From Dactylonectria macrodidyma (lineage: Eukaryota > Ascomycota > Sordariomycetes > Hypocreales > Nectriaceae): a stretch of 64,000 bases of DNA. The stretch covers positions 372,001 to 436,000 of the forward strand of contig JAGMUV010000019.1 in assembly GCA_020744425.1 (NCBI GenBank). Reading direction: 5' to 3'. Under the pieces are notes generated by a model that saw nothing but the letters and a program-made list of their open reading frames with translations, searched no databases and was not told the origin of the DNA. A program made the translations under genes and the position numbers. Numbering within the stretch: position 1 is the stretch's first letter; the number at the start of each line of letters is the position of its first letter. This document shows, one piece after another, positions 36,931 to 54,187 of the stretch.

Positions 36931-38598
36931 TTAGGACGCTTCTTTATACTGCACACCAATGCTACACTCCTCTTCCTTTCCCTCCGACGCTGCGGCGAGT
37001 GCCTTCTGCTCCCCAATGAGTCTGACACTCGCCCTTCCAACCTTGTACCAGGGCATTGTGAACAGTTCATCCATACGCTCCATCGAGACCCCCTTTGTCT
37101 CAGGATAAGCGAAGAAGCAGTATGCCGTGAAGCAGGTAGTCGTCACAGCGAAGAGGAGGAAGGGGCCCCAGGGGTGGATGGTAATGACCATCTTCGGTTG
37201 AGCCTTTGTCAAGGCGAAGTTGACCAAGTATTGCCAAGTAATGCAGATGGCCATACAGGTTGACCGAACATTGTTGGGGAACACCTCGGAGTTGATGATC
37301 CACGGGATGGTTCCCCACGATATTGCGTATCCGATGGCAAATATGTAAATTGCCACGACTGCTACCCATCCTGCGGCTCCCGTTTGCGAAGTTGCGTCGG
37401 TGGAAGGATGAGCGACGGCAACATATACAGTCAAGTATAGAAGTGCGCCAATAATCAGACCAGAACCAACGAAGAGACCGAAACGCCTTCCAAATCTGTC
37501 AATGATGTATAGACAGTAGAGAAGGACAGCGATGAACTTGACCAGTCCATAGATACCTGAGAACAGATAGTTGGTGGATTTTGTTATCAGGCCAATAGAC
37601 GTCAGAATCGAGGTATTATAGTAGGTGATGATGTTGCCACCCGAGAACTGGAAGCCGACTTGGATCAGCATGACCATTATCATACGCTTCCGAACGGACA
37701 TGGAGAAAATCTCCTTCCAGATACCGGCTCCTCCAGAGTGGACTGATCTCTCTGCCTCAATGTTGCCGCAGATTTCACCGAGCTCCCGCTCGACAAAAGC
37801 GTGGCTCCGAGACAACGATCGCAGGTGCTCAAGGGACTTGGTCGCGGCCTCGATCTTTCCATGGATGGCTAGCCATCTAGGAGATTCAGGAATAAAGACC
37901 AAGCCAAGTAATAGAATGACTCCCGGAAGCGCCTGCACACCCATAGGAACTTGCCACTGGGTGTTACTCTCGGAGCTGATGTGTCGGAGGGAACCGTAGT
38001 TGATCCAATAAGCCAGACCAACCGAGAGCATGGTGTTGGCATTGTACAACGCGGACAGGCCGCCTCGGATGGCCTTGGGAGCAATCTCGGCGATGTATCC
38101 AGTGCCTATGACACTCGCCGCTCCAGAACCGAATCCTGAAAGCGCGCGGCCGACTAGAAACTCGACACGGCCACCGCTGCCACCAGGGTTGGCGCTCATA
38201 AGAACGGCAGAGAGCGAGAAGAGGACCGTGAAGAATGCCAGCGAGATCTTGCGCCCGAATTTGTCAGTGACAGGGGCACAGGCGAATGCGCCGACACATG
38301 AACCGAGGATCAGAATCGAGGTAATCCAACCAGTCCAGTCAGCCAGAGAATCGTCCGAAAGAGTATCGAGCTCAAAGTGATGTTTGAATGTGTTCATGGC
38401 AAGGACGCCGGAGATGTTGGCGGTGTTGAAACCTGGAAGAAAGGAAAAAGATTAGTTTGGTCAACGAGTACAAATGGAGATGGACAACGTACCATGTAGA
38501 GCACCAGAGAATGAAAGAATGGCGCAGTAGAAAATAATCTTCCAGGAAATGATCTCCTTGGGAGTCTCCGCGTACGCGGACCGATCGATGATAGCCAT
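36931..38598 (-). CDS. MFS sugar/quinate-type transporter
   Basis: Two exons: 38598-38493 and 38432-36931, intron 38492-38433 (donor GTACGT); 535 residues. Exon 1 supplies the first helix (IIFYCAILSFSGALHG), spliced into FNTANISGVLAM. Sugar-porter signatures: DKFGRK after helix 2, ERELGEI in the central loop, PESPRWL after helix 6, DRFGRR after helix 8, and PETKGVSMERMDELF after helix 12. Twelve membrane helices are expected. It imports a sugar, polyol, sugar acid or quinate-like compound at the plasma membrane by proton symport. It is divergent from the amidohydrolase at 39358, sharing a 759-bp promoter with four CGG-N7-CCG sites, and is the probable uptake step of the cluster. Confidence 0.9.
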
Positions 38599-38793: not shown

Positions 38794-39158
38794 CGGGTCT
38801 CGCCCGTCTTCTCCACAATCCGGGGTAGGGTATGGGGGTTCTCGGGGTGTCCGTGGAGATGACATTAGCATCATTACGAGAAAAGTTCCCTGGACATGGG
38901 AGCCTGACCCTTGGGGTGATACCCGGAGCGGGACGCGGCCGTTGAGCTAGCAAGAGGCTTTCCTTGACCTTGCTCATCGGGTTAATCGGATTGTGACCGT
39001 AGAACGTGAATAGCATTCAATTTGAACATGATTCGATTTCATACATGGGCCATTCGTGCCATCACTAAGCAAAGCACACGTGCCGACTGGATGGTAGGGG
39101 ACTAGGTAGGTTAGACGAATGACTAGCACCCAGCGCCGCTGGTGTCGGAGGAAAGCCG
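38794..39158. promoter_or_regulatory. Four CGG-N7-CCG inverted repeats in the MFS/amidohydrolase promoter
   Basis: CGG and CCG triplets separated by exactly seven bases occur at 38794-38806 (spacer GTCTCGC), 38929-38941 (GACGCGG), 38987-38999 (ATTGTGA) and 39146-39158 (AGGAAAG). The outer two lie 196 bp and 200 bp from the two start codons. Zn2Cys6 dimers bind such inverted triplets, with spacer length setting specificity. Confidence 0.6.
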
Positions 39159-39357
39159 ATGGCAATTAGTTGTAGGCGGCAGTCGTTTATGCAGAGGGAC
39201 GGATAGCCGATGCCGAGAGAGCCTCATGACAGTTTATCTTTTTCCTTTTTAAGGCACTAGTCTTGTCACGCCGCTGGAGCATATGAGTCGTACACAATCC
39301 CAAATCTTGTGTTGAGGTTATACGCAGTACATACAGAACGCAACACATTATTGCAAC

Positions 39358-40305
39358 ATGTCGCCTAATTCTCCGACCGCAAGCCAGATCAAGCCCGTCC
39401 CCAGCAGTGCTTGGGACACCCATCATCACATCTTTGAGCCAAACCAGTTCCCATTCGCAGCCGGCCGGCACTTCACCCCGTCGGTTGCTACGCTGGAGCA
39501 GCTGAAGGAGTTTGAGGCGTCCATAGGAGTCGCTCACGTCTGCATCGCGCACGGTTTATCCTACGGAGCAGACTGCTCCTCCTTGCTGTATTACTTGGGC
39601 CAATTCAATGGCGAGGCACGGGGAATTTGCGTCTTGGACGAGGCAAACGTCACCGACGAGCAGCTCGACGCATACCACGATGCTGGGATTCGGAGCGTTC
39701 GCTTAGACTTCTTCAAAGCTCAAGCTATGGACGACCAAGAGAAGCAGGTGGAGCTGATTCGATCTACTGCAGAGAGGCTTCATCGATGGGATGCCTCGGG
39801 AAAGGGATGGAGCATCCAAATCCAGCAACCAAACCTGTCTCATTGGAAGAAGCTGAGGGAGGTTGCTCATGGACTGGGACTGCCGCTTGTCCTCGACCAC
39901 ATGGGTCTGGTCAAGGCCGCCAGCATGGCCCCTGAAGGTTCTATCCCAGCTACTAAGACTGAAGGGTGGCAAGACCTGCTTGGATCTCTGCGCGATGGCA
40001 ATCTATGGATCAAGATCTCAGCGCCGTATCGATGCTCGCGCGGAGATCCTGAATTTGACGATCTGGAGGACATTGTCAAGCAGCTCGTGGCGGCGAACCC
40101 CAAGAGGATGGTTTGGGGCAGTGACTGGCCGCACACGCAGCGACACGAGGATAGACACAAGCGCAGCAAGGATAGCGAGGAGCCGTTCTTGAAGATAGAC
40201 AACCCGAGGTGGATTGAGTCGTTGAGCACATGGCTCAGCGACGAGGAGTGGCAAGACTTGTGGGTAAATAACCCATGCAAGCTGTACGACTACCCTCAGC
40301 AGTAG
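39358..40305 (+). CDS. Amidohydrolase family 2 (lactonase-like, COG3618 type)
   Basis: Single exon of 315 residues. The TIM-barrel metal motif starts the protein: AWDTHHHIFEP (residues 19-29). Later strands carry IRSVRLDFFK, LPLVLDHMGL and MVWGSDWPHTQRHED, where the final Asp is the general base. The family includes 2-pyrone-4,6-dicarboxylate lactonase (LigI), D-galactarolactone isomerase and sugar-acid lactonases such as L-rhamnono- and L-fuconolactonase. A lactone-hydrolysing role in the cluster is therefore likely. Cytosolic; no signal peptide. It is divergent from the MFS gene and followed by the class II aldolase in the same direction. Confidence 0.85.
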   Translation: MSPNSPTASQIKPVPSSAWDTHHHIFEPNQFPFAAGRHFTPSVATLEQLKEFEASIGVAHVCIAHGLSYGADCSSLLYYLGQFNGEARGICVLDEANVTDEQLDAYHDAGIRSVRLDFFKAQAMDDQEKQVELIRSTAERLHRWDASGKGWSIQIQQPNLSHWKKLREVAHGLGLPLVLDHMGLVKAASMAPEGSIPATKTEGWQDLLGSLRDGNLWIKISAPYRCSRGDPEFDDLEDIVKQLVAANPKRMVWGSDWPHTQRHEDRHKRSKDSEEPFLKIDNPRWIESLSTWLSDEEWQDLWVNNPCKLYDYPQQ

Positions 40306-40604
40306 ACTAGGAACATGGGAACATGGCTGGCACTTGGCATATAGTAGATTGTATGTACCGTGGAAATGGTGTATACTGCAAAGAGTTAGTTCACGTTGGC
40401 AATCCACCTAGTCAATTTTGATGTTCTTGTGATTACGTCCAGGGGACGGAAACCGAAACCTGGCCAGGATTATTCCTCATGGATGATGCATCTGCTCTAT
40501 GGATCTAGTATGTAATGGTTTCTGTCAGGCGTCATGTCTCTATGCGGAGTCGGGTTGGAATCGGAACTAGTCATCCTCATGGCTTAGAGTACAATGATAC
40601 CCAC

Positions 40605-40617
40605 CGGCTTTACCCCG
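40605..40617. promoter_or_regulatory. CGG-N7-CCG site before the class II aldolase
   Basis: CGG-CTTTACC-CCG, 137 bp before the ATG at 40755. Confidence 0.5.
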
Positions 40618-40754
40618 AAGGTGGACACATGGCCTACCTATACAAGGATATGTATGCCTGGGGTTGTAATATTTGGGCCTTGTGTACAACGCCAATTTGT
40701 CACAAGGCTCCTCTGTGCTGTCGTTTCCACCTGGTATACTTGACAGGATCCAAG

Positions 40755-41781
40755 ATGCCTGAATTCCCTCACAATAACAGGACCTTTCAGGTGCTTGACG
40801 CCGCTCGGAAGGGGGGATACGCAGTGGGCGCGTTCAACTGGTGGGTTTAGCAAAGCCAAAGAACATGAACGAACTCTGAGTATTTCGTTAACCATGCTGC
40901 AGTTACAATAATGACGGAGTAATGGCTGTCATCCGCGCAGCGGAGGCTTGCCAGTCTCCAGCAATCATCCAGCTCTTTCCTTGGACAATGAAGTTTCAAG
41001 GCGCCCATTTCGTCCGCTACGTCATCGAGGCGGCTCACGCAGCGAACGTGCCCATTGCCGTCCACCTCGACCACTGCATCGAGCCGACTGACGTGGAAGC
41101 CGCCCTGGAACTTCCGTTCGACTCCATAATGATCGATGCTTCGGTGGAGGATCCGGAAGAGAATAAGCGGGAGTGCAAGAGGGTGGTGAAGATTGCCAAC
41201 GCTAGAGGAATTGCCATTGAGGCGGAAATGGGACGCATTGAGGGCGGAGAAGACGGTCTGCCTACTGTTGACATGGACACTATTCTTACGCAGCCCGACT
41301 CTGTTAAGGAGTTTGTGACCGAGACTGGCGTCCAATTCTTGGCGCCGTCGTTTGGAAATATCCACGGAAACTATGGCCCTGGTGGCCCCGAGGCGTCGTG
41401 GCATCTACCTTTGTGAGTTTGCGCTGCGTTAAACAAGTGCTCTCCGAAGACTTCTTGGCTGGCCCCTTCAAGATTCGTGGGAGTGAAGATGAACATGCTA
41501 ACATGTTTAGGCTAATGGAGATCCACGAAACCCTTCCTACTATCCCGCTGGTGCTTCACGGGACACACGGCGTATCGGACGAACTTTTCCGCGTCTCGAG
41601 GAGGCACGGCATGGCAAAGATCAATCTGAACCGAACGGTTCGAGACGAGTATACGGACTTTGTGGCCAAGAATTCCGGCACGCTTGAGCTCACGGAGCTG
41701 AAGATGCGAGCGGTGGAAGTGTACCAGGCTTCTATCATGAGGGTCATGAGGGAGGTCCTTGAATCTGCCGGAAAAGCATGA
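40755..41781 (+). CDS. Class II fructose-bisphosphate aldolase-like enzyme
   Basis: Three exons: 40755-40840, 40903-41412, 41511-41781; donors GTGGGT and GTGAGT; 288 residues. The zinc-dependent aldolase signature is complete: GAFNCYNNDGVMAVIRAAE near the N-terminus, HLDHC (H83, D85, H86), IDASVED, FLAPSFGNIHGNY with a zinc histidine, and LHGTHGVSDE with the third zinc ligand plus phosphate-binding glycines. At under 300 residues it resembles the tagatose-bisphosphate/ketose-bisphosphate aldolase group (GatY/KbaY, FbaA-short) and not the about 360-residue housekeeping yeast enzyme, so a specialised catabolic aldol cleavage of a phosphorylated ketose or sugar acid is likely. It sits between the amidohydrolase and the RraA-like gene, all on the plus strand. 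Confidence 0.87.
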
Positions 41782-42223
41782 TCTGAAGAGGCGTGAGAAT
41801 AAAAGTCTTGAGTTGTTATTATCGCGTACATAAAAATTGCCTACATGAACCACATGACGTCCCTGATGACATAAATTGCAGTGGCTGATCACAACCACTT
41901 AACTAAAACCCTGCTAGCGGTGCATGTTTCATTCCCTCATAAATGTCTCGTGACTAGCCTGGGTAGAACCGCTTGCAGGAGCAAGTCAATGGCAAGATGC
42001 TGGACTTCTTTCCTCTTGATGGACCTCCTAGGCAGAATCCATTATAGAGCTAGTCTCAGTGCGATTGTCAGACTAGACAACGAGAATGACAAGGTCTCGG
42101 CCCGGGATCGACTCGGATTTCCATGGACCTTTGGTGACGTACGCTAGTCTAGTTATTTCCCCTCGGTGGCCTAGAAGCTGAGGCGCTACTTGGGATGGTG
42201 CTTCAGGGATCGGATGTTCCCGT

Positions 42224-42236
42224 CGGACGAAAGCCG
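42224..42236. promoter_or_regulatory. CGG-N7-CCG site before the RraA-like gene
   Basis: CGG-ACGAAAG-CCG, 114 bp before the ATG at 42351. A neighbouring CGG-N6-CCG overlaps the same stretch. Confidence 0.5.
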
Positions 42237-42350
42237 ACCGGCGAGACCGAGCCTGGAGCAGATAATTGAGCCTGAGCAGCATCACTCAAAGCTGTGGCTA
42301 AGCCAAGACGCTCAATTCTGATCGCATCGCCAAATACATTGTCAACTAAA

Positions 42351-43296
42351 ATGACTTCATCAACTGAATCCGTCGTTGAGCGACTGCAGCGGTGGTCCAG
42401 CTGCGACGTATGTCCTCATCCCACAGCTGAAATCTAACGTGTCTCGCTAAATCTCCACCAAAACACAGATCTCTGACGGCTTATCCAAGCTCGGCCATGC
42501 ACACGGCGGCTTCCTTGAAGGCCTTGTTATGTACGCGCCCGAGTTCCAGGCTGGGCGGACCAAGATCGTAGGGCCCGTCTTCACCGTCAAGTTTGCACCC
42601 AAGACGGACGCGACGGCCCCGAAGCTCAAGGGCAACTACGTATGTTCCATCAATGCTACCATGCTTATGCTTCATGACTATAGAATGTGAAGCTAGGCTT
42701 CGCCTGGGGTTCGACGCGAGCTGCTCTTTTAGATCCGTTCATTAACACATGTTCAATTAGGTGGATCAAATTCCCGAGGGCTCCGTTGTCTTCATCTCCC
42801 AGCCACTCCCGCACATCAATGCATGCTATGGCGGCTTGATGTCCTTGAGGGCCAAGCATCTTGGTGCCCGCGGAGTAGTCATTGATGGCTTCCTACGAGA
42901 TCTCCAGGAACATCGAGACCTTGAATTCCCAGTATGTATCCATTCCTTACCTAAACTCGCTCATTCGTTTGCTACGAGGCAACAATTCGACTACAATGAC
43001 TTACGGTTCCACAGATGTTCGCTAGGGGAACCGGCACAACCGCCGGTGGTGCCGTCTGCTTCCCATCCGAGATCAACGTGCCAGTTCAGCTGCAGTCCAC
43101 GAAGCAAGAGGCAACCATCGCCCCGGGGGGATATATCATTGCCGATCTAGACGGGGTTGTGTTTCTTCCTGGAGACTTGGCAGAGAAGGTTCTGGAGGTC
43201 ATCCCAAGCATTGTGGCTGCGGATGAGAAGTGTGCCGAGGCCATTCGTGGTGGGATGACAGTCAAGGAAGCATTTGCGATGTACAGGGGAAAATAG
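42351..43296 (+). CDS. RraA-family aldolase (HMG/CHA aldolase-like)
   Basis: Four exons: 42351-42407, 42469-42639, 42761-42931, 43015-43296, with donors GTATGT three times; 226 residues. The fold signature is present: ISDGLSKLGHAHGG, VVFISQPLPHINACYGGLMSLRA split by the family-typical loop, then ARGVVIDGFLRDLQE with the R122-D123 catalytic pair, and FARGTGTTAGGAV. These are the substrate and metal-binding residues of 4-hydroxy-4-methyl-2-oxoglutarate/4-carboxy-4-hydroxy-2-oxoadipate aldolases. The family also has oxaloacetate decarboxylase activity and sugar-acid members. Despite the RraA name, an RNase E role is excluded in fungi. In this cluster it probably acts on a 2-oxo acid intermediate. 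Convergent with the Ldh2-type gene. Confidence 0.85.
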
Positions 43297-43631
43297 AGAG
43301 AGAGAAAGATATAAAATATACAGCTCAACTCTTGTAAAAAATATTCGACATATTTTGCGTGTTGTCCCGCATTACTTATGTGCCACATTTGCAAGTGCGA
43401 CTTCGGCACTTGGTTGACTGCAAGTTGCGCCCTACAGATTAATTCCCATGACGAGTGGATATCGGAGAGCTAAGTGAATGGCAGTTACATTGACCATGAA
43501 TTATCACCCACGTAGATATAATGATTCCTTCTGAATGCAGTCACTTGATTAATTCAACACTCAAGTCAATTCTTTACTATGTTGTTGTATCTATTTTGGG
43601 TGCGCATTGTCGATTCTCCCATGTGAGGCTC
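43297..43631. other. Convergent 3' region
   Basis: AT-rich gap between two stop codons; no feature seen. Confidence 0.3.
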
Positions 43632-44800
43632 CTATGCCAGAGGGACATTTGACAAAGCCAATGTAGGTACGCCGTACTTCTCAGCCAACTCATCGAACAT
43701 CTTCTTCTCGGCCTGGGCGAACGGCAGTCCTTGGACCTTACGCTCTAAGGAAAGTCGGTGCTCGGGCTCTCCGGGGAAGAGGACCTCCTTGAAGCCATCT
43801 GCTGGGGCGACGCCATGAACGCGCTGGACCAAGGTGTCGATTCTTGATCGGAACTCGTCCGACGACATGAAGACGTCGGGCTTGATGACGATGAAGCTGT
43901 GGCCTACATTCTGTGGGCGAGACTCCTTGTACTGGTCGCCTACTTGGCCACCGAACTCGGCGCCAGAGAGGACACCCGACATGATGTCCATCAGAATGGC
44001 GATTCCTGATCCCTTGGGGCCGCCAATGGGAGCCATAGAGCCGTTGAGAGCTTCGTCGGCATCTTCGGTGGGCTTTCCATCCTTGTCGTACGCCCAACCC
44101 AGAGGAATCTTCTCGCCACGGCGGGCAGCCTTGCGGATCTTGCCCTTGGCCACGACAGAGGGGGCCATGTCGAGAATATAGGGCACTTCATTCTTGCTGG
44201 GGGCGCCGGCGGCGAAGGGAGAGATGCCGAGCAGCGTCTCCTTGCCGCCAAAGGGAGGCATCTGCTTGGCCGAGTTGGTGAAGACCAGCGAGATCATGCC
44301 TGCGTCGAGGGCCTGCAGGACGTATGTGGCGGCCATGCCGAAGTGGTTGGAGTGGTTGGCCGTGACGATGCCGATGCCGTAGGTCTGAGCTCGGCGGATG
44401 GCGTCCTCCATGGCCTTGCAGGCGACGATGAAGCCGAAGCCGTTGTCTCCATCGACGTGAGCCGCGACCGGCGTCTTTTCGGTGATTTTGATGTCGGGTT
44501 TGGCGTTGACTAGGCCGCTGTTGACGCGTTCGACGTACTGCTGGAGGCGAGCAAGACCGTGTGTGTCCTAAAAGTAATGGCGAGATGTGAGCATAGGAAG
44601 GAATAGATGGGATGGCTTGGAAAAGCCATGAGAGAGGGACATGGGGAGTGGCATCTTACCACGCCGCGAGTATCAGCTTGAACCAAGCAATCAGCCATGA
44701 GGGCGGCATGGTCCTCAGGAAGACCAGACTTGATCAGCAGCGCGCGTGCAAAAGCTGCGGCCTCGCTGGGCTTTGCGTAGAGACGAGCTTCGGATGCCAT
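43632..44800 (-). CDS. Malate/L-lactate dehydrogenase family (Ldh2/YiaK type) oxidoreductase
   Basis: Two exons: 44800-44660 and 44567-43632, intron with donor GTAAGA and acceptor TTTAG; 358 residues. The splice gives DTRGV-DTHGLARLQQYVERV, the N-terminal family pattern. ANHSNHFGMAATYV (117-130) holds the catalytic histidine; SPFAAGAPS, LDMAPSVVAKGKI and APIGGPKGSGIAILMDIMSG are the nucleotide and dimer regions. The family (Pfam Ldh_2) reduces 2-oxo acids or oxidises 2-hydroxy acids with NAD(P): malate, ureidoglycolate, sulfolactate, 2,3-diketo-L-gulonate. In this cluster it could act on a sugar acid. Divergent from the Zn2Cys6 gene at 45381. Confidence 0.88.
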
Positions 44801-45073
44801 TTTGGAGGTGGTGGAGGTGGAAGAATGTGTAGCTGATGAGCTGGTGTAGATAGTCTCAATCTCACTGTGTTGGGCAAGGGTCTGAAGAAACGCCGTTGCA
44901 AGGTGTGATCTAGGTGTCCCAGAGTGTCTGGGGTTGGCAATCAGAGGGAGTCAATGGTTTTATCGAATCATCGCGTCAACCAAAATGCCGGCTGATCACT
45001 CTAATCCTTTCACATGTCTCCCCGTATTATGGAGTAACTACGTGATGCTCAGCTACACCAACAGCTAGCTGAT

Positions 45074-45086
45074 CGGGATTATGCCG
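45074..45086. promoter_or_regulatory. CGG-N7-CCG site between Ldh2-type gene and Zn2Cys6 gene
   Basis: CGG-GATTATG-CCG, midway in the 580-bp divergent promoter: 273 bp from the dehydrogenase ATG and 294 bp from the regulator ATG. It would allow autoregulation of the factor. Confidence 0.5.
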
Positions 45087-45380
45087 AACGCGGGGCTTCA
45101 AAAGTTTGGAGCAAAGCCGTAGCGTCCGACTGACTGCGGGGCGCTTGCATTCTTTTAGCCCTTGTGGCCATGTGGAGATGGCATCATACCAATCCCGATG
45201 CCCCGGGATGCTTGCGATTAAAGCACGGCATTTCCCCTTCTTCCCCCAGACCAGGCCCGTTTCCCCAGACTCCATGACCTGGCATCGTCTCGCTTTCAAC
45301 CCGAGCTGTCATCTAGGATCAGTATCCGGCATCTCTTATCTCTTCCATCTCCGTCATTTGTAACCAAGAACGACTCCGGC

Positions 45381-47853
45381 ATGTCGGCCGGGGCTCCTCC
45401 GAGATGCATCGGCGACTCGCAGCAACATCCCGAGCCGCCGCAGCAACAGCATCCTGAGCCTCGCCCCGCTCCTCGGGGATCCGGACGCAAGAAAGGAACG
45501 GCCTGCGCTCGCTGTCGGGGCCAAAAGATTCGCTGTGACGACGAGACGCCCTCGTGCGCCAACTGTGCGCGCGTAGGCGCTTCGTGCGTGCGTTCGAACC
45601 TGGCTAATATACCGGACGCTGTGAGGTTCGTTTTGCTATCTACCTAGCGCGAGATCTAGGTAGTCAGCCGCCGTATGTCGAGTTGAGGCTGATAGCTATC
45701 GCGTCTTTCACAGCCACGTCACGCAGATAGAATCACGACTGCGTTTCCTCGAAGAATCGCTTCGTCGTGTCGCCCCCGAGGAGCTGGAAAAGGCACCTCC
45801 CGTCAGTCATGCCTCCTTCAGCTTCAACGGCAACGGTCCATTTCTCGGTCAACCATATGCAACAGATACTCTTCAGTCACCGGCATGGCCACTTCAATCT
45901 CACTCTCACCTCACGGGGGGCGTCAACTTGGCCACGGGGCCTGGGATAAACAATCCTCTCCACCAAGGCATCCACCAAGGCGTCTCCTCCACCAGCCCAA
46001 GTGTCGTGGCCTCCGTCAGTCCTGCTGCCTCGACCGAGATTGGCCCCGGCGAGCCTCTAGCCCACGAAGTTGGCATGCTCTCGCTTGCCAACTCGACCGC
46101 TTCCAAGTATCTGGGCCCCTCGTCTGGTGTCCCTTTTGCCCGCTTGATCTTCTCCGCCATCCCACAGTCCCAAGGCTTGGCTACCAACTGGGCTACTCCA
46201 GATGGGGCTTCGACTTCCCAACGCCTTGCTCAGGCGCAGCCTTTCCCTCAGCACTGGACATCCGACGTAGATCTACAGCATTTTGTGGATGCCTACTTTG
46301 AGACGCACCAGCCTTTCTATCCCTTCCTAGACGAGGATGCCGTCGCCGACCGCCTTGAGCTTCTGTATACGAAGCCATCGCCAGCCGTCCATTCTCTGCA
46401 AATGCCCAAACTGGCCGAAGTAGACGCATCGCTCTCCCCAGCGCACGTAGTGCAGATGTTTCTCGTCGTCGCGCTTGGTGCCCGAATCTTGGAAGTCCGC
46501 CTGTCATCCGATTTTTCCTCTGAGCGATACCTGGCGACGGCCATGCAGCGCATCGGCACGTTGGCGCTGCATGACAGCATCGAAGGACTCCAGATCATGC
46601 TCCTCCTCACCCTGTCCAGCTTCTACTTCGAAGACGGCCCTAATGCGTGGTTTCTGACGTCCAACATCATCGCTAGCTGCTTGGACTTGGGCTTTCAGCG
46701 AAAATGGACTGTAGCTCCTCCCCATCCTCCGCCTGGCAAGAACAACAGACAGCTTCCTGTCCACGACAACCTCAGAAGAGGAATATTTTGGTCTGCCTAC
46801 TCCCTCGAGAGAACCCTGGCTGTGGTCCTTGGGCGGCCACTCACCCTCCGCGACGAAGCCATTGATGCTGAGTTTCCAGGTGAAATGGTTGTTGATCCAA
46901 GCCTAGGAGAAGAAGACACCCACAATCCAAGCCAAGAACACGAACATCAGCCCAAACGTGCTCGTGTTACTATATATCCGTATACCGCCTCGCGGTATTC
47001 ATTTCGCTTTGATCAAATCATTGCAGAGATAAAACTTATGCTCCATCGCGTCGTCAACTTGCCGCATCGCTTTCCGTGGCCGACAAACATTGAGGAGTGG
47101 AAAAAGGTGATTAAAACGGACTGCGATGCTCTTCTGGAAGATTTGAGGAGGGATCTAAGGCGACGCTCCCGGCGCAATACATCTGACAGCGCTATCCGAA
47201 ACCTAGAGCTCAAGTATCACCATTGCCTGATGCTGCTGCACCGACCCTCACCAGCCGTCCCTCGACCAAGCGTCGACTCATGGAAGACATGCTACAACAG
47301 CGCCGCGGCCACGATCCTCCTCAACGCGGAGCTTCACCGCTTCTCCAAGCTCTCTAACAGCTGGCTGACGGCGCACACCGTCTTCGTCAGCGGTATCACC
47401 CTGCTGTATTGACTTTGGGTGAACCCAGAGATCCAAGCCGAGACTACGCCTGGCGACTTCTCGGGCGTCGCAAAGGCCTGCACGGATCTTCTGCAGTACC
47501 TGGGTAAGACGTGGAGCGTGGCTGCCGACGCGGTGGACAAGATGGAGAGGCTGGTCCATATGACGACGAGTTCTTGGAAGACGGGCCAGGACGAGCGGGA
47601 GTCAGAATTGGCTGCTGGCCACTCCTTGATGTCAATGTGGCAATCCCAGGGCCAGTACTTTATGAAGACGTCAGGGAGCGATGGGAAAGGCCCTGGAGGT
47701 CCTTTGATGGACTTGCCTACCTTTGGCTCTGCGGAAATGCAGGAAGGAACCGGGCCAGGCGTCGAGTTTGAGTCGGAGTTTTTCTTCAACGAGCTTGGAG
47801 ACATGAGCACATGGTTTGATCTTGACTGGCTTGCCAATCCGAACGTTGGGTGA
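45381..47853 (+). pseudogene. Zn2Cys6 transcription factor interrupted by an in-frame TGA
   Basis: Exon 1 45381-45625 and exon 2 from 45714 (donor GTTCGT, acceptor CACAG). The zinc cluster C42, C45, C52, C59, C62, C69 has canonical spacing and follows a basic RKKGTACARC start. A coiled-coil-like HVTQIESRLRFLEESLRR comes next. A fungal-specific TF domain (FVDAYFETHQPFYPFLDE; RRGIFWSAYSLERTLAVVLGRP) follows. The frame stops at TGA 47410-47412, after 647 residues, inside VSGITLLY. The same frame continues at once with LWVNPEIQAE and runs another 146 codons to 47853, ending in acidic/hydrophobic sequence (FFFNELGDMSTWFDLDWLA) typical of an activation domain. In homologues this position is normally Cys, and TGC or TGT to TGA is a single change. 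It may be a null allele, a readthrough stop or a sequencing error. It is the likely cluster regulator. Confidence 0.8.
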
Positions 47854-48017
47854 CAGTGGGATATGAACTCTGCCCTCTGTACTATTTTGATGTGATATCA
47901 TTATTCCATTGTTTGGTGGCGTTTAACTCTTCGCGTACGGCGTGGCATCTGTCGTATGATCAAATTGCAACTCATCCACTACTTCAAATGAATCGTCGAT
48001 GCCTATCTCAATACCTA

Positions 48018-50043
48018 TTAATTGCTAGGTCCCTTCAATGCATCCCGAATGCCCGTCACTATTGAAAACACACCGCAGGCACCGGGGTCAGGAATACCTC
48101 TACCAACGCTTCCCCCTTCCTCGGCACCAACATACGTACTGCGGCCAAACTTGCCCTGGATGTCTCGGGTCAGTTGGCATCCTGCATCTGCTGCAGCCAC
48201 TGCCTGGTCCAATCTCTCCAAAGTTGTTCCATTTGCAGATGACAGGGTATTCACGAATGGAATCAGCGCATCCATCATGGTCCTGTCGCCCTCCCTGGCG
48301 GCCGTAACGCTCTGAAGGCTGTTCAACGCCGCTTTAGCTGCGTCAGCCAAGTCACGGAACTCAAAAGCTCCCCGCAACTCGCAGCTGGATGAAATAGCAG
48401 AAGCCAGTCCCGTGAAGAAGACAGAGTACAAGGCGCCGGATGTGCCTCCCATGCTCCGACAGAGGACGTTGGCCAGATCCATGATGCCTTGGGAAAGGCT
48501 GCCAGAATTGAAGGTGCCGTCTTCTATAGCTGCGACAACTGATGCAGAGCCACTGAGAAGTGTGGTTCCGCAGTCTCCGTCGCCCAATATTGTATCCATT
48601 CTTGTGATTTCGGGTTCTGCAGCGACAAGCGAAGCGTGGACAGATTTAACGATGTGGGTGAAGGTTTCAGCGTTGCCTGGTGTTTGTTAGCCTAAACATT
48701 CGGAATAGTCAAACATCATCGAAATTTATTCATACAAGGGACTGATGGGCCATCAAGTGGTTTCTTTTCCTGGGTTGTTTCATGCACCGGCTCAGAAGTC
48801 CCAGCTTTGGCGGAAGAATCATTCCACGCTGCTGTCGAGATACTGCTCGTCCAGCCAAGAGCATCCGTGGGCGCATCCAACCACTGGAGGACCTGACCAG
48901 AAAGAGGTTGGTTCTTGGGCAAACTGAGAAGAGTAATACTGAAACCTGGCCCGTTTAAGGCCGACAAGAAGGTACCGCAGTACATCCGCGAGGGCTTGAT
49001 TGCGTAGTCGCTCTTGAGTTGAGAGACAACCTCGCCAGTTGCAGCGGCCATTTCAAGCTGCGACAGAGAGCCCAAGTTGTTGACGAGGAGAACGACGTCG
49101 TGCTCATCTGGCCTTGGAGAGTTCTCGATGTAGTTGCGCTCAGCGTCGGTCGTGTCTAGAAGCGCAAGCATCATCTCCTTGACCAAGACAGATAGACTGG
49201 GTCGCGGCTGAACCCGTTTGCTACCAGGCTCGTTGTGAATGCCAATACCAATCTCTAGCTCATCAGGCTGTAGTCGGGACTTGGGAGCTTGACCAGGCAT
49301 GCTGCAAGAATCCAATCCCACGCCGATGGTGCCCATGTTCTTTGTGGCAAACTCGGCCACGTCTGCCACCTCGTCGAGGCTGAGGCCAGCGACAGATGCA
49401 GCACCAGCGACCTTGTGCACCAGCACTGTTCCAGCGAGACCTCGTCTTCCAACCAGACCAGACCTTGTGCGTCCAATGGAGACGTCGTCGCTCACAATGA
49501 CTAGCCGAATCGGCGTGCGCGACGTGAAGCGGAAGCGATCTGCCGCCAGGCTGAAGTTCAGCTTGTCGCCGGTGTAGTTCTTGACGATGACTAGGATGCC
49601 TCGGGGCGATTCGATGAGTTTCAGACCCCCTTCGATCTGCAGCGCGTTGGGAGATGCAAAGACGGCGCCACAGACGGCTGCATCCAGCATGCCATGACCT
49701 ACGTATCCTACATGGGCCGGCTCGTGGCCAGAACCGCCTTCAAGGTAAAAACCGTCAGAGATCAGAATCAAGACCGCTGGGACGGAGAGGGTTGCATAGA
49801 TCTAGTTCTCTGGGCGGGACATACCTCCACTGATCAGCGTAACCCGACTCTTCTTGTCGCTCGAGTTCCGATAGATGACTTTTGCTTCAGTTAGTCCAAG
49901 ACTCGGCGCTAGAACGGATGGAAAGTGGTACCCCTGTGTTCTTCGTTGTGTTGCAGCGACGGATGCAAGGCGACAAAGCCATCTAGGGCACTCCAAAGCG
50001 CCGTCTCGCTGTCAAGCACAATCGACAAGTTTCGCTCAGACAT
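48018..50043 (-). CDS. Dihydroxyacetone kinase (DhaK-DhaL fusion)
   Basis: Four exons: 50043-49932, 49884-49825, 49737-48736, 48676-48018; introns of 47, 87 and 59 bp; 610 residues. The N-terminal DhaK domain shows KVIYRNSSD, ISGGGSGHEPAHVGYVGHGML and the substrate-binding histidine H225 in EIGIGIHNEPG. The C-terminal DhaL domain has the nucleotide/Mg signature MDTILGDGDCGTT (418-430) and RSMGGTSGALYS. A Ser/Thr/Lys-rich linker joins them. The enzyme phosphorylates dihydroxyacetone; related kinases act on erythrulose and other short ketoses. In this setting it may phosphorylate a pathway intermediate before or after aldol cleavage. Three CGG-N7-CCG sites lie within 270 bp of its start. Confidence 0.9.
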
Positions 50044-51229
50044 TGTTGGAGTATCGACCGGAGTTTGTTCTAGTGCGACCCAAGTTGAGCTTACAGGGCC
50101 GTTTCTCCATCCCCTGAACAGCGGTACACCTTATACAGCATGGATACGACGTTATTCGCTGTCTCAGTCTATCTCGATTCGTACTACTCGGACCATCAAC
50201 ACAGTCATCTCCATGATTCCGACCCGGCTTCTAACATCGGCAAATGGCCGATAAAGGTCGGAGACGGACCGGCTTGTGTCCGCCCCCACATCGGATGCAA
50301 ACCGCCGACTGACGAATTGGGGGGGATTCGCGAAAGCTACAGTCTTGTCATAACAACTTTTGTCCTGTACCTAATCATTTAGGTTTCATCACCCCTGTCA
50401 CAGAGCAAAGGCTAGGCTGTAATAAAAAGTCTCTTTAAAACATGGCACCCTGTCCTTGATGGATATTCGGAATTGTGGCCCTGTCCATTCAGGTGGTGAG
50501 GCATGGCTATCCCTTAAGATGCATCTCGTCCGCTTTGTATTACAAGAGCGTTACTACTGCCTCAAGCTGCGATATGAATTAAGATATCAAGCCTTATTCG
50601 TAAGCATTACACCGGAGACTTGTATTTCATTCGTGACATAATAAACTTGAAAGGCCATTCAAGGCTCTAGGGTAGGTAATTCCTTCTGATGGAAGTGGAG
50701 GTTGGACGTGTCTTGGTGCGTGACTTAGCGAGTCATGAAGGACTGTTGATAACCGGGATAAGGATCAAATCCATATCTAAGGGGAAGGAAGGGGTATATT
50801 TGTAAGGAAAAACCTCCCTCTATTCCCTTCTCCGTTATTTCAATCGCCGCAGCTTGATTCCGTCTGTCTGCTTGTTTCCTGTTGCGTGTCGTGCCCGACA
50901 AGTGGCTCCCAGCAAACCCTAGCAAAGCCAACACCTTCTTTCAACCAGGACTAGCTGGCAGTATCCACGACTCGAGACCCAAACTTTCACGTAATACGTA
51001 CGCATATGTAATATCAATGGGTATGTATTTGACATAAAATAAGAATGGCTTGAAAGCCATTCCAGTGACTAAGAATTGAAGTCTTCGGACAAATTTTGCA
51101 TTGAGACCAAATACATCCAGTCCATTATCCCGACGAACACACCGAATGGGAACCCCAAGGACCAGAATTTCGAACTAACTAGGTGTCGAACCAATTCAGT
51201 ATCCAAAGAAAAACTAATCTCTCTTTATT
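50044..51229. other. Intergenic region
   Basis: Apart from the three inverted CGG repeats this 1.2-kb stretch holds only short unsupported ORFs. Confidence 0.4.
50238..50304. promoter_or_regulatory. Three CGG-N7-CCG sites upstream of dihydroxyacetone kinase
   Basis: Sites at 50238-50250 (spacer CAAATGG), 50259-50271 (AGACGGA) and 50292-50304 (ATGCAAA), 194 to 260 bp before the ATG at 50043. The first two start 21 bp apart, two helical turns, so bound dimers would face the same side of the DNA. Confidence 0.6.
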
Positions 51230-52947: not shown

Positions 52948-53639
52948 TCTGGCGGTGTTGGTTGTTGAAGCGATGGATGGAGAAGAGAGTGCAGAAGTTG
53001 AGCGAGGGTGTCCGGTTGAGCCGTGCCCTAGGAAGGATCTTTATAGGGTACTTATTGTATTCGCAGGGTAAGAGGACCATGCTTGACTTGATGAGCTGCT
53101 GAGAGATAGGCATGGGCTAGAACCGCTGTAGCTGTCTTTGTTGTTCAGGGTTTAGCACGGACAAGACGCGCTTCAACTCCTCCACATAACTCCGCCTGGG
53201 GACCCCGCAAGCATCTCGCGGGGTACTCGTGACGGCGGAAAACTGGGCTTTGGAGAAGAGAAACATTAAAAGGGGGAGCTAAGTGGGGATGGTTGGTGGA
53301 GATTGCGATTTGATCTTTAAGTTCCCGTTAGAGCCCGATTATGCCGGTGTTGCAAGCCGGCCTCACCCCGAGAAGCCGGCCGTGATGCCGTAGTGGCGGA
53401 TTCAACTCTTGATGCAGCTGGTGAGGAACAGGAGTCGAGGCCCATGTGCCGTGTGATCAAGTAGGAGCCAGGATTCCTATTCACCTGACGAGGACCCAAC
53501 TAAAAAGGCATTCTCCTTCGCTGACTTGTTCAAGCCATCAGCTGTATCAAACTCGCGTTCTCACCGCCACCGCTTCCCATTTTCGCAGTTACTCCTCAAC
53601 TCTACCAAAGCCTTCCATTTGACTTACACGTCCATAATC
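52948..53639. other. Divergent promoter with CGG/CCG-rich stretch
   Basis: Between the Dal5-type transporter and the Dabb gene. A GC-rich segment at 53340-53400 holds several CGG and CCG triplets, including one N7 inverted repeat at 53358-53370 (spacer CCTCACC). Confidence 0.4.
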
Positions 53640-54187
53640 ATGACTATTGTTCACATGGGTAAGTTAATCACGCTGATCCTCACCTCAATGGCCTATAGGT
53701 ATACTAATACTAATTCTTCCATCACAGTATTCTTTCGCTTTCGAGCCGACGTCACCGACGAGCACAAAGAAACCTTTGTCCAGGAACTCAAGAAACTCAA
53801 GAACCTCTCCTGCGTCAAGGACAACAGGTTAATAGTCGGAGGGCCTTCCGTCACCGACCCAATCGAGAGGAGCAAAGGATTCGAGTTCGCTCTGCTCAGC
53901 TTTCACGAGAACCGCGCTGCTCTCGATAAGTATCAGGCCTCCAAGGAACATCACTGGTACGATTCCATCACTACCACTATTACTTGCCATACCGGGTATG
54001 ACTTTATCGTGTCTCGCTAATGTTATTACTGTTTAGGGTCACGCAGACATACATGTTCCCCTTCAAGGAGGACCTCTGTCGGTTTGACTTTGAAGTCGCG
54101 CCCGAGGATGAACATATGTGCACGTTCCGCGCGTTATCCCAATTATCAGGAATTCAAACCCCGGCCGAAAGTGAAGAAGCAGCATGA
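53640..54187 (+). CDS. Dabb (stress-responsive A/B barrel) domain protein
   Basis: Three exons: 53640-53658, 53728-53956, 54037-54187; donors GTAAGT and GTACGA; 132 residues. The first exon encodes only MTIVHM plus a split Val codon, giving TIVHMVFFRFR, the classic start of Dabb proteins. The body has ELKKLKNLSCVKDNRLIVGGPS and a C-terminal HHWVTQTYMFPFKEDLCRFDFEV joined across the last intron. Such dimeric ferredoxin-like barrels include stress-induced proteins and polyketide cyclases; no catalytic role can be assigned from sequence. The longer frame from 53526 is not needed. Confidence 0.85.

What the first reader, a model, noticed from the sequence alone, without database searches (positions are those of the whole stretch)
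38794..50304. A shared CGG-N7-CCG inverted repeat marks every promoter of one gene cluster
Ten copies of CGG-N7-CCG lie in the five promoter regions of the 36.9-50.0 kb cluster: 38794, 38929, 38987, 39146 (MFS/amidohydrolase), 40605 (class II aldolase), 42224 (RraA), 45074 (Ldh2/regulator), 50238, 50259 and 50292 (dihydroxyacetone kinase). The promoters total about 2.9 kb. At even base composition one 13-bp match is expected per 4096 positions, so less than one by chance. The neighbouring promoters of the permease, aminotransferase, first Zn2Cys6 factor and cupin show none. This is the kind of operator a Zn2Cys6 dimer reads, and it defines the members of the cluster independently of annotation.
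Basis: partly seen in the sequence, partly recalled or inferred. Interest (0 to 1): 0.88.

Follow-up and report, generated by a model that had tools for sequence, protein, structure and literature searches.

The report
Shared operator of a fungal catabolic regulon
A 13-base mirrored DNA signal (CGG, seven free bases, CCG) sits in the promoters of a fungal sugar-breakdown gene cluster, of a second related cluster, and of a gene that seems to have moved away from the first cluster, which makes it very probably the docking site of the clusters' own zinc-cluster switch proteins.

Summary
Five promoters (3,532 bp) hold 11; the next best of 63 triplet dyads/spacings reaches 5, 2,000 shuffles reach at most 5, and the genome-wide rate predicts 0.66. 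Flanks lean to TCGG-N7-CCGA. Two independent lines go beyond the finding. (1) A paralogous cluster on another contig (Ldh2, fungal factor, IlvD, SDR, Dabb) carries 7 N7 sites in 1,140 bp of promoters; no other dyad there exceeds 2. (2) An 88-bp relative of the kinase promoter's array lies 156 kb away upstream of an ATP-grasp gene that relatives keep beside the factor and kinase. Best reading: the activating site of this Zn2Cys6 family, an N7 variant of the PPR1 (N6) class. Caveats: three promoters have one site, each an 8-10% chance event; absence next door and at a C6 kinase/aldolase pair says little; genome-wide the motif is not enriched; the cluster factor has an in-frame TGA where 12 of 12 aligned relatives have Cys, so its paralog may be the working reader. 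No binding data; site conservation in other species untested.

The parts
36931..38598 (-). Sugar transporter gene (MFS, PF00083)
   Evidence: gene model, Pfam
38794..38806 (.). CGG-N7-CCG site, MFS/amidohydrolase divergent promoter
38929..38941 (.). CGG-N7-CCG site
38987..38999 (.). CGG-N7-CCG site (T flank on one side)
39146..39158 (.). TCGG-N7-CCGA site
39358..40305 (+). Amidohydro_2 gene (nearest solved relative: 2-pyrone-4,6-dicarboxylate hydrolase)
40605..40617 (.). CGG-N7-CCG site, aldolase promoter (single)
40755..41781 (+). Class II fructose-bisphosphate-type aldolase gene (PF01116)
42224..42236 (.). TCGG-N7-CCGA site, RraA promoter (single)
42351..43296 (+). RraA-like gene (PF03737)
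43632..44800 (-). Ldh_2 (PF02615) dehydrogenase gene
45074..45086 (.). TCGG-N7-CCGA site, Ldh2/regulator divergent promoter (single)
45381..47412 (+). Zn2Cys6 factor gene (Zn_clus + Fungal_trans); exons 45381-45625 and 45714-47412; frame ends at TGA 47410-47412 where 12 of 12 aligned relatives have Cys
47413..47853 (+). Further codons beyond the in-frame TGA, homologous to the C-terminus of relatives
48018..50043 (-). Dihydroxyacetone kinase gene (Dak1+Dak2)
   Evidence: deposited protein P0121, 608 aa, 100% identical over 93% of the query
50226..50313 (.). Operator array of the kinase promoter; 75% identical over 88 columns to the ATP-grasp promoter array at C11:266323-266408
50238..50250 (.). 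TCGG-N7-CCGA site, retained in the ATP-grasp array
50259..50271 (.). CGG-N7-CCG site, retained in the ATP-grasp array
50270..50282 (.).
50292..50304 (.). CGG-N7-CCG site, retained in the ATP-grasp array with 4 of 7 spacer bases changed
53358..53370 (.). CGG-N7-CCG match 282 bp upstream of the Dabb gene (single; tentative)
53640..54020 (+). Dabb (stress-response A/B barrel) gene, a probable cluster member; exon limits not modelled

Best explanation
The repeats are upstream activating sites read by a dimeric Zn2Cys6 activator whose DNA-binding domain is nearest to PPR1: each monomer reads a (T)CGG half-site and the linker and coiled coil fix a 7-bp spacing. The natural reader is the factor encoded at 45381, which shares a divergent, site-bearing promoter with Ldh2, or its paralog at C12:686 kb, whose own cluster uses the same site. 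An inducer, probably a sugar lactone or sugar-acid intermediate, would switch on transporter, amidohydrolase, aldolases, dehydrogenase and kinase together. Shown: site enrichment, spacing specificity, a flank lean, recurrence in a paralogous cluster, a homologous array at the ATP-grasp gene. Inferred: binding, dimerisation, activation rather than repression, inducer, pathway.
For: 11 N7 sites in 3,532 bp with no competing dyad above 5; TCGG-N7-CCGA, 955 per 77.3 Mb, occurs 4 times in these promoters. Zn_clus and Fungal_trans domains in the linked factor; nearest solved DNA-binding domain PPR1, 1pyi, E 6e-9. Paralogous cluster C12: 7 sites in 1,140 bp of three promoters, 0.21 expected; no other dyad tested exceeds 2. 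ATP-grasp array: 18 of 18 triplet bases kept against 15 of 21 spacer bases and 33 of 49 other columns (my count on the alignment); that gene gave one match in the genome and is fused to, or linked with, the factor and kinase in relatives.
Against: No binding or expression data. The factor's frame has a TGA 147 residues early. Three of five promoters have one site only. The motif is not enriched genome-wide, and neither are close pairs: the backwards control is commoner (24,228 against 14,352; 117+112 against 57+53). In the 264 kb of C11 examined, other dyads also form groups of 3 or more within 600 bp (up to 5 such windows and up to 5 matches in one, against 6 windows and at most 4 for N7, of 42 dyads), so grouping alone is not proof. 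Over the whole 16.4 kb of C12 the N7 excess is less clean (17, next inverted spacings 15 and 14).
Confidence: 0.8

Rival explanations
1. The sites in the main cluster are now read by the C12 paralog (or a heterodimer), because the cluster's own factor is truncated; one protein runs both clusters.
For: Both clusters use the same half-site and spacing. The 45381 frame stops at 47412 before a C-terminus that relatives largely conserve (ELGDMS-WFDLDWL in the consensus), while the in-frame stop in the C12 factor can be removed by a short intron with a canonical GTAAGT donor.
Against: The stop could be an assembly error or a strain polymorphism; the truncated protein keeps its zinc cluster and most of Fungal_trans; the paralogs are only 30% identical; the C12 factor's six-cysteine signature was seen only by eye, split over two frames.
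Confidence: 0.25
2. The sites belong to a broad regulator (for example carbon-source control) and not to the pathway-specific factor.
For: 14,352 matches genome-wide; zinc-cluster regulators such as AcuK/AcuM act on many genes (PMC12719309, passages).
Against: Sites concentrate at two paralogous clusters that each carry a related factor and at a former cluster neighbour. AcuK/AcuM read a direct CCG-N7-CCG repeat, of which the five promoters hold none. The flanks of a C6 kinase/aldolase pair have no site, but 0.4 to 1.0 would be expected, so that control is weak.
Confidence: 0.12
3. Chance or base composition.
For: The motif was picked after seeing the data; three promoters have a single site; no genome-wide enrichment.
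Against: 11 observed, at most 5 in 2,000 shuffles; maximum over 63 dyads in 500 shuffles was 8; independent replication at C12.
Confidence: 0.02
4. The likeness of the kinase and ATP-grasp arrays reflects only a recent duplication and not selection on the sites.
For: Order and spacing of three sites are shared.
Against: All 18 triplet positions are kept while the remaining 70 columns are 69% identical (0.69^18 is about 0.1%, treating columns as independent); no other significant match between the two promoters was listed.
Confidence: 0.1

Closest known systems
PPR1 (Saccharomyces, Candida) and, from recall, UaY of Aspergillus
   Same: Zn2Cys6; inverted CGG triplets; nearest solved DNA-binding domain; TCGG/CCGA flanks as recalled for UaY; three of the 120 relatives listed (P0011, P0094, P0071) carry automatic labels of purine or pyrimidine regulators.
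   Different: PPR1 reads CGGN6CCG (PMC11534201, passages); here N6 occurs once and N7 eleven times in the five promoters, and none of the enzymes modelled looks like a purine or pyrimidine gene.
AcuK/AcuM (AOD2/AOD5) regulators
   Same: Seven-base spacing between triplets (PMC12719309, passages).
   Different: Direct CCG-N7-CCG repeat; 0 such repeats in the five promoters; no PAS domain found in the factor here at E 0.001.
FUR1, L-fucose regulator of Trichoderma reesei
   Same: Sugar-catabolism factor, cluster-linked in some species, with its own motif (PMC12370193, passages).
   Different: CCGACGG (CCG-N1-CGG) instead of inverted N7; that dyad occurs once in the five promoters.
GAL4
   Same: Inverted CGG triplets; alignable linker and coiled coil.
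   Different: CGGN11CCG (PMC11534201, passages); N11 occurs once in the five promoters.

Membership tests
Fungal Zn2Cys6 transcription factor | CX2CX6CX5-24CX2CX6-9C signature and zinc-cluster domain | tested here: met
   PF00172 37.5 bits against cutoff 21, residues 40-71; signature as quoted in PMC11534201 (passages), matched by eye
Fungal Zn2Cys6 transcription factor | Fungal_trans middle region and intact C-terminus | tested here: inconclusive
   PF04082 64 bits, but an in-frame TGA removes the last 147 residues
Zn2Cys6 inverted-repeat operator (CGG-Nx-CCG) | Fixed spacing enriched in target promoters | tested here: met
   N7 11 against at most 5 for any other of 63 dyads; replicated in three C12 promoters, 7 against at most 2
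Zn2Cys6 inverted-repeat operator (CGG-Nx-CCG) | Bound by a dimer of the cognate factor | not testable with these tools
   needs EMSA or DAP-seq
Zn2Cys6 inverted-repeat operator (CGG-Nx-CCG) | Sites conserved in orthologous clusters of other species | not testable with these tools
   no fungal DNA collection was open; only proteins of relatives were reachable
PPR1/UaY-type operator | CGG-N6-CCG spacing | tested here: not met
   N6 once, N7 eleven times
AcuK/AcuM operator | Direct CCG-N7-CCG repeat | tested here: not met
   0 in the five promoters

The most novel reading that the evidence does not exclude
One operator type, TCGG-N7-CCGA, ties together a dispersed regulon: two paralogous catabolic clusters on different contigs, each with its own factor of the zinc-cluster kind, and a member that left its cluster but took the operator array along. 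Because the main cluster's factor is truncated, control may have passed to the paralog, a regulator hand-over caught in progress.
Probability: 0.2. Interest if true: 0.65.

Novelty: new variant of a known kind. Interest (0 to 1): 0.48.

Why it matters
From recall, the operators of most fungal zinc-cluster factors are unknown. Here sequence alone gives a spacing class, a candidate regulon and a testable factor-site pair, and an evolutionary test case: a gene that left its cluster with a copy of the regulatory array. It would also help to define a still unnamed sugar-acid or lactone pathway (amidohydrolase, RraA, Ldh2, class II aldolase, dihydroxyacetone kinase, ATP-grasp, Dabb) whose factor, kinase and ATP-grasp genes appear to stay linked in several ascomycetes.

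Tried and rejected
Chance and composition (rejected for the set). Frameshift in the kinase: suspected from my first models, rejected because the deposited protein P0121 runs through that place as one protein, which an ordinary intron explains. An intron rescuing the factor's TGA: 12 GT-AG options of 40-140 bases listed, none with a GTRAGT-type donor and all deleting residues that relatives keep. A six-residue excess in my first factor model was corrected by a later acceptor site; searches used the uncorrected model. Further copies of the kinase array: a 131-bp DNA search of the genome listed only itself; it also missed the known ATP-grasp array, so it is insensitive.

Literature: no paper of the library holds CGGN7CCG, CGG-N7-CCG, CGG N7 CCG or CGGNNNNNNNCCG, nor TCGG-N7-CCGA or TCGGN7CCGA (where both hits held CCGN7CCG); spellings with brackets cannot be searched and subscription papers are missing, so this does not show the spacing to be unreported. 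Searches for a described cluster of this make-up: one search found none, one search listed 12 of 13 papers, none of which I recognised from title and abstract start as describing it. Searches were further listings; of papers I saw passages only.

The linkage table used typed contig lengths from 59 of 120 listed factor rows, 21 of 120 kinase rows and 25 of 120 ATP-grasp rows; identity of contig is inferred from equal length, so it is partial and indirect.
Full report
What it is. The window is C11:372001-436000 of a 77.3-Mb, 77-contig genome. Two deposited proteins, a kinase (P0121, 100% identical over 93% of the query) and an ATP-grasp protein (P0241, 100% over 88%), lie on a contig of exactly C11's length (1,466,067) and are named Dactylonectria macrodidyma, so the source is taken to be that species (inference from identity and length).

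Genes. Models and Pfam: Sugar_tr transporter 38598-36931(-), Amidohydro_2 39358-40305(+), class II aldolase 40755-41781(+), RraA-like 42351-43296(+), Ldh_2 44800-43632(-), Zn2Cys6 factor 45381-47412(+), dihydroxyacetone kinase 50043-48018(-). Nearest solved relatives are 2-pyrone-4,6-dicarboxylate hydrolase, a putative fructose-bisphosphate aldolase, the RraA-like protein YER010C and L-sulfolactate dehydrogenase. That fits catabolism of a sugar acid or lactone (inference); the substrate is unknown.

The observation. Ten of ten listed sites exist, plus one missed. Five promoters, 3,532 bp, hold 11. Of 63 dyad/spacing combinations (CGG..CCG, CCG..CGG, and CGG..CGG summed with CCG..CCG, spacers 0-20) the next highest is 5. 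Shuffles: mean 0.53, maximum 5 of 2,000; the maximum over all dyads in 500 shuffles was 8. Genome rate 14,352 per 77.28 Mb gives 0.66 expected. The motif is not enriched in the genome as a whole: the pattern read backwards is commoner (24,228). Flanks: with the three ATP-grasp sites added, T precedes the CGG in 18 of 28 half-site views. TCGG-N7-CCGA occurs 955 times in the genome and four times in these promoters (39146, 42224, 45074, 50238). The single-site promoters are individually unconvincing (8, 10 and 10% by chance), although two of those three sites have both flanks.

Replication in the same genome. The best other matches of the factor (30%) and of Ldh2 (51%) lie together at C12:683.9-687.3 kb. 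Fetched DNA (C12:677355-693803) shows a cluster Dabb / Ldh2 / Fungal_trans factor / IlvD-type dehydratase / SDR. Pfam found only Fungal_trans in the factor piece scored; the six-cysteine signature is visible by eye in two frames separated by an intron-like gap (ACLRCQRRKIR, then CDGELPACKNCRNAGATC). The 16,449 bp hold 17 N7 sites, the highest of the inverted spacings 0-20, though spacers 14 and 0 reach 15 and 14, direct repeats (both strands summed) reach 20 and GC-rich control dyads 18. The clean signal is in the three promoters: 7 N7 sites in 1,140 bp (683502, 683543, 683675; 685188, 685211; 689977, 690008), 0.21 expected, with no other dyad above 2. I set the promoter edges from first ATGs after seeing where sites lay; the Dabb edge is approximate, and the factor's ATG came out 10 bp further right than the edge used.

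The relocated member. A search for paired sites (57 + 53 matches genome-wide against 117 + 112 for the backwards control; the first 100 listed, so most are presumably chance) showed C11:266335, 266355 and 266387. The region is 75% identical over 88 columns to the kinase array, and no other significant match between the two stretches was listed. Triplets 18 of 18 kept, spacers 15 of 21, other columns 33 of 49 (counted on that alignment); the fourth kinase site, 50270, is not kept. The array lies about 146-210 bp before the ATG of an ATP-grasp gene that gave one match in the genome. In Diaporthe and Colletotrichum the same protein is annotated as fused to this factor (P0017, P0029, P0030, P0105), which implies neighbouring genes. 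In Cylindrodendrum it is fused behind Dabb (P0281, g7868) next to the kinase (g7867), with the factor at g7871. Consecutive or near tags also occur in Fusarium lateritium (factor 009040, kinase 009039), Fusarium sp. NRRL 66182 (factor 908, ATP-grasp 907) and F. torreyae (factor 013734, ATP-grasp 013730). Equal contig lengths place factor, kinase and ATP-grasp on one contig in 8 other assemblies, including an 11,070-bp contig of the closest relative (87%, 81% and 83% identity), and two of the three on 12 more (a partial table; long contigs show only the same chromosome). So a former neighbour seems to have moved 156 kb along the scaffold with a copy of the operator array. A phosphotransferase-like frame starts on the other side of that array (my reading of the frame, no Pfam run), so it may serve two genes.

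Edges and controls. The Dabb gene at 53640 probably belongs, by the Cylindrodendrum fusion and by the copy at C12, the only other match in the genome; it has one upstream site, 53358. Flanks of another kinase/aldolase pair on C6 (2,200 bp) have no N7 site, but only 0.4 to 1.0 is expected there, so this is weak. A group of three at C11:440701-440824 precedes an Iso_dh gene, a possible further target. In the same 264 kb other dyads also form occasional groups, one with five matches, so groups alone are not decisive.

The factor. In 12 of 12 aligned relatives the place of the TGA at 47410 reads Cys (YCLW in 11, YCFW in 1; the window's own sequence was compared by eye). None of the 12 introns tried removes it plausibly. 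It may be a real truncation, a strain polymorphism or an assembly error. The 120 rows name no Dactylonectria factor. The C12 factor's in-frame TAA can be removed by a short intron with a canonical donor.

Known frame. Zn2Cys6 factors read inverted, direct or everted CGG triplets with variable spacing (PMC11534201; PMC12719309; passages). PPR1 reads CGGN6CCG and Gal4 CGGN11CCG. AcuK/AcuM read CCGN7CCG. FUR1 reads CCGACGG (PMC12370193, passages). The UaY site TCGG-N6-CCGA is recalled, not read. The nearest solved domain is PPR1; linker lengths of PPR1, GAL4 and this factor look alike by eye, so spacing cannot be deduced from length. An inverted N7 operator in this branch is a new spacing variant as far as my limited searches show.

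Verdict. The finding is real and stronger than stated as an operator, weaker than stated as a membership rule. Mechanism confidence 0.8; which of the two factors reads the sites today is open.

Noticed in passing
window 47410-47412: In-frame TGA in the Zn2Cys6 factor where 12 of 12 aligned relatives have Cys; 147 homologous codons follow. Possibly a decaying gene, a polymorphism or an assembly error.
   Followed up: partly
L025 4335-4399 (C11:266335-266399): Three-site array homologous to the kinase promoter array, between an ATP-grasp gene and a divergent phosphotransferase-like frame.
   Followed up: yes
C12:683-690 kb (L042, L011, L045): Paralogous cluster Dabb/Ldh2/factor/IlvD/SDR with seven CGG-N7-CCG sites in three promoters; the 13-mer CGGGAATTGTCCG occurs in two of them.
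   Followed up: yes
L036 4701-4836 (C11:440701-440836): Three CGG-N7-CCG sites starting within 124 bp, upstream of an isocitrate/isopropylmalate-dehydrogenase-type gene, 4.7 kb right of the window.
   Followed up: partly
window 53358-54020: Dabb gene, outside the stated cluster, is probably a member: its Cylindrodendrum relative is fused to the ATP-grasp gene's model; one site upstream.
   Followed up: partly
C6:722-725 kb and C1:5700-5707 kb: Two other places where a dihydroxyacetone kinase and a class II aldolase homolog lie close together; the C6 flanks lack the motif, the C1 flanks were not read.
   Followed up: partly
P0242 (Dactylonectria estremocensis): A sister species has the ATP-grasp gene (88%), but none of the 120 rows listed or is named after it, which hints (no more) that the main cluster is missing there.
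   Followed up: no
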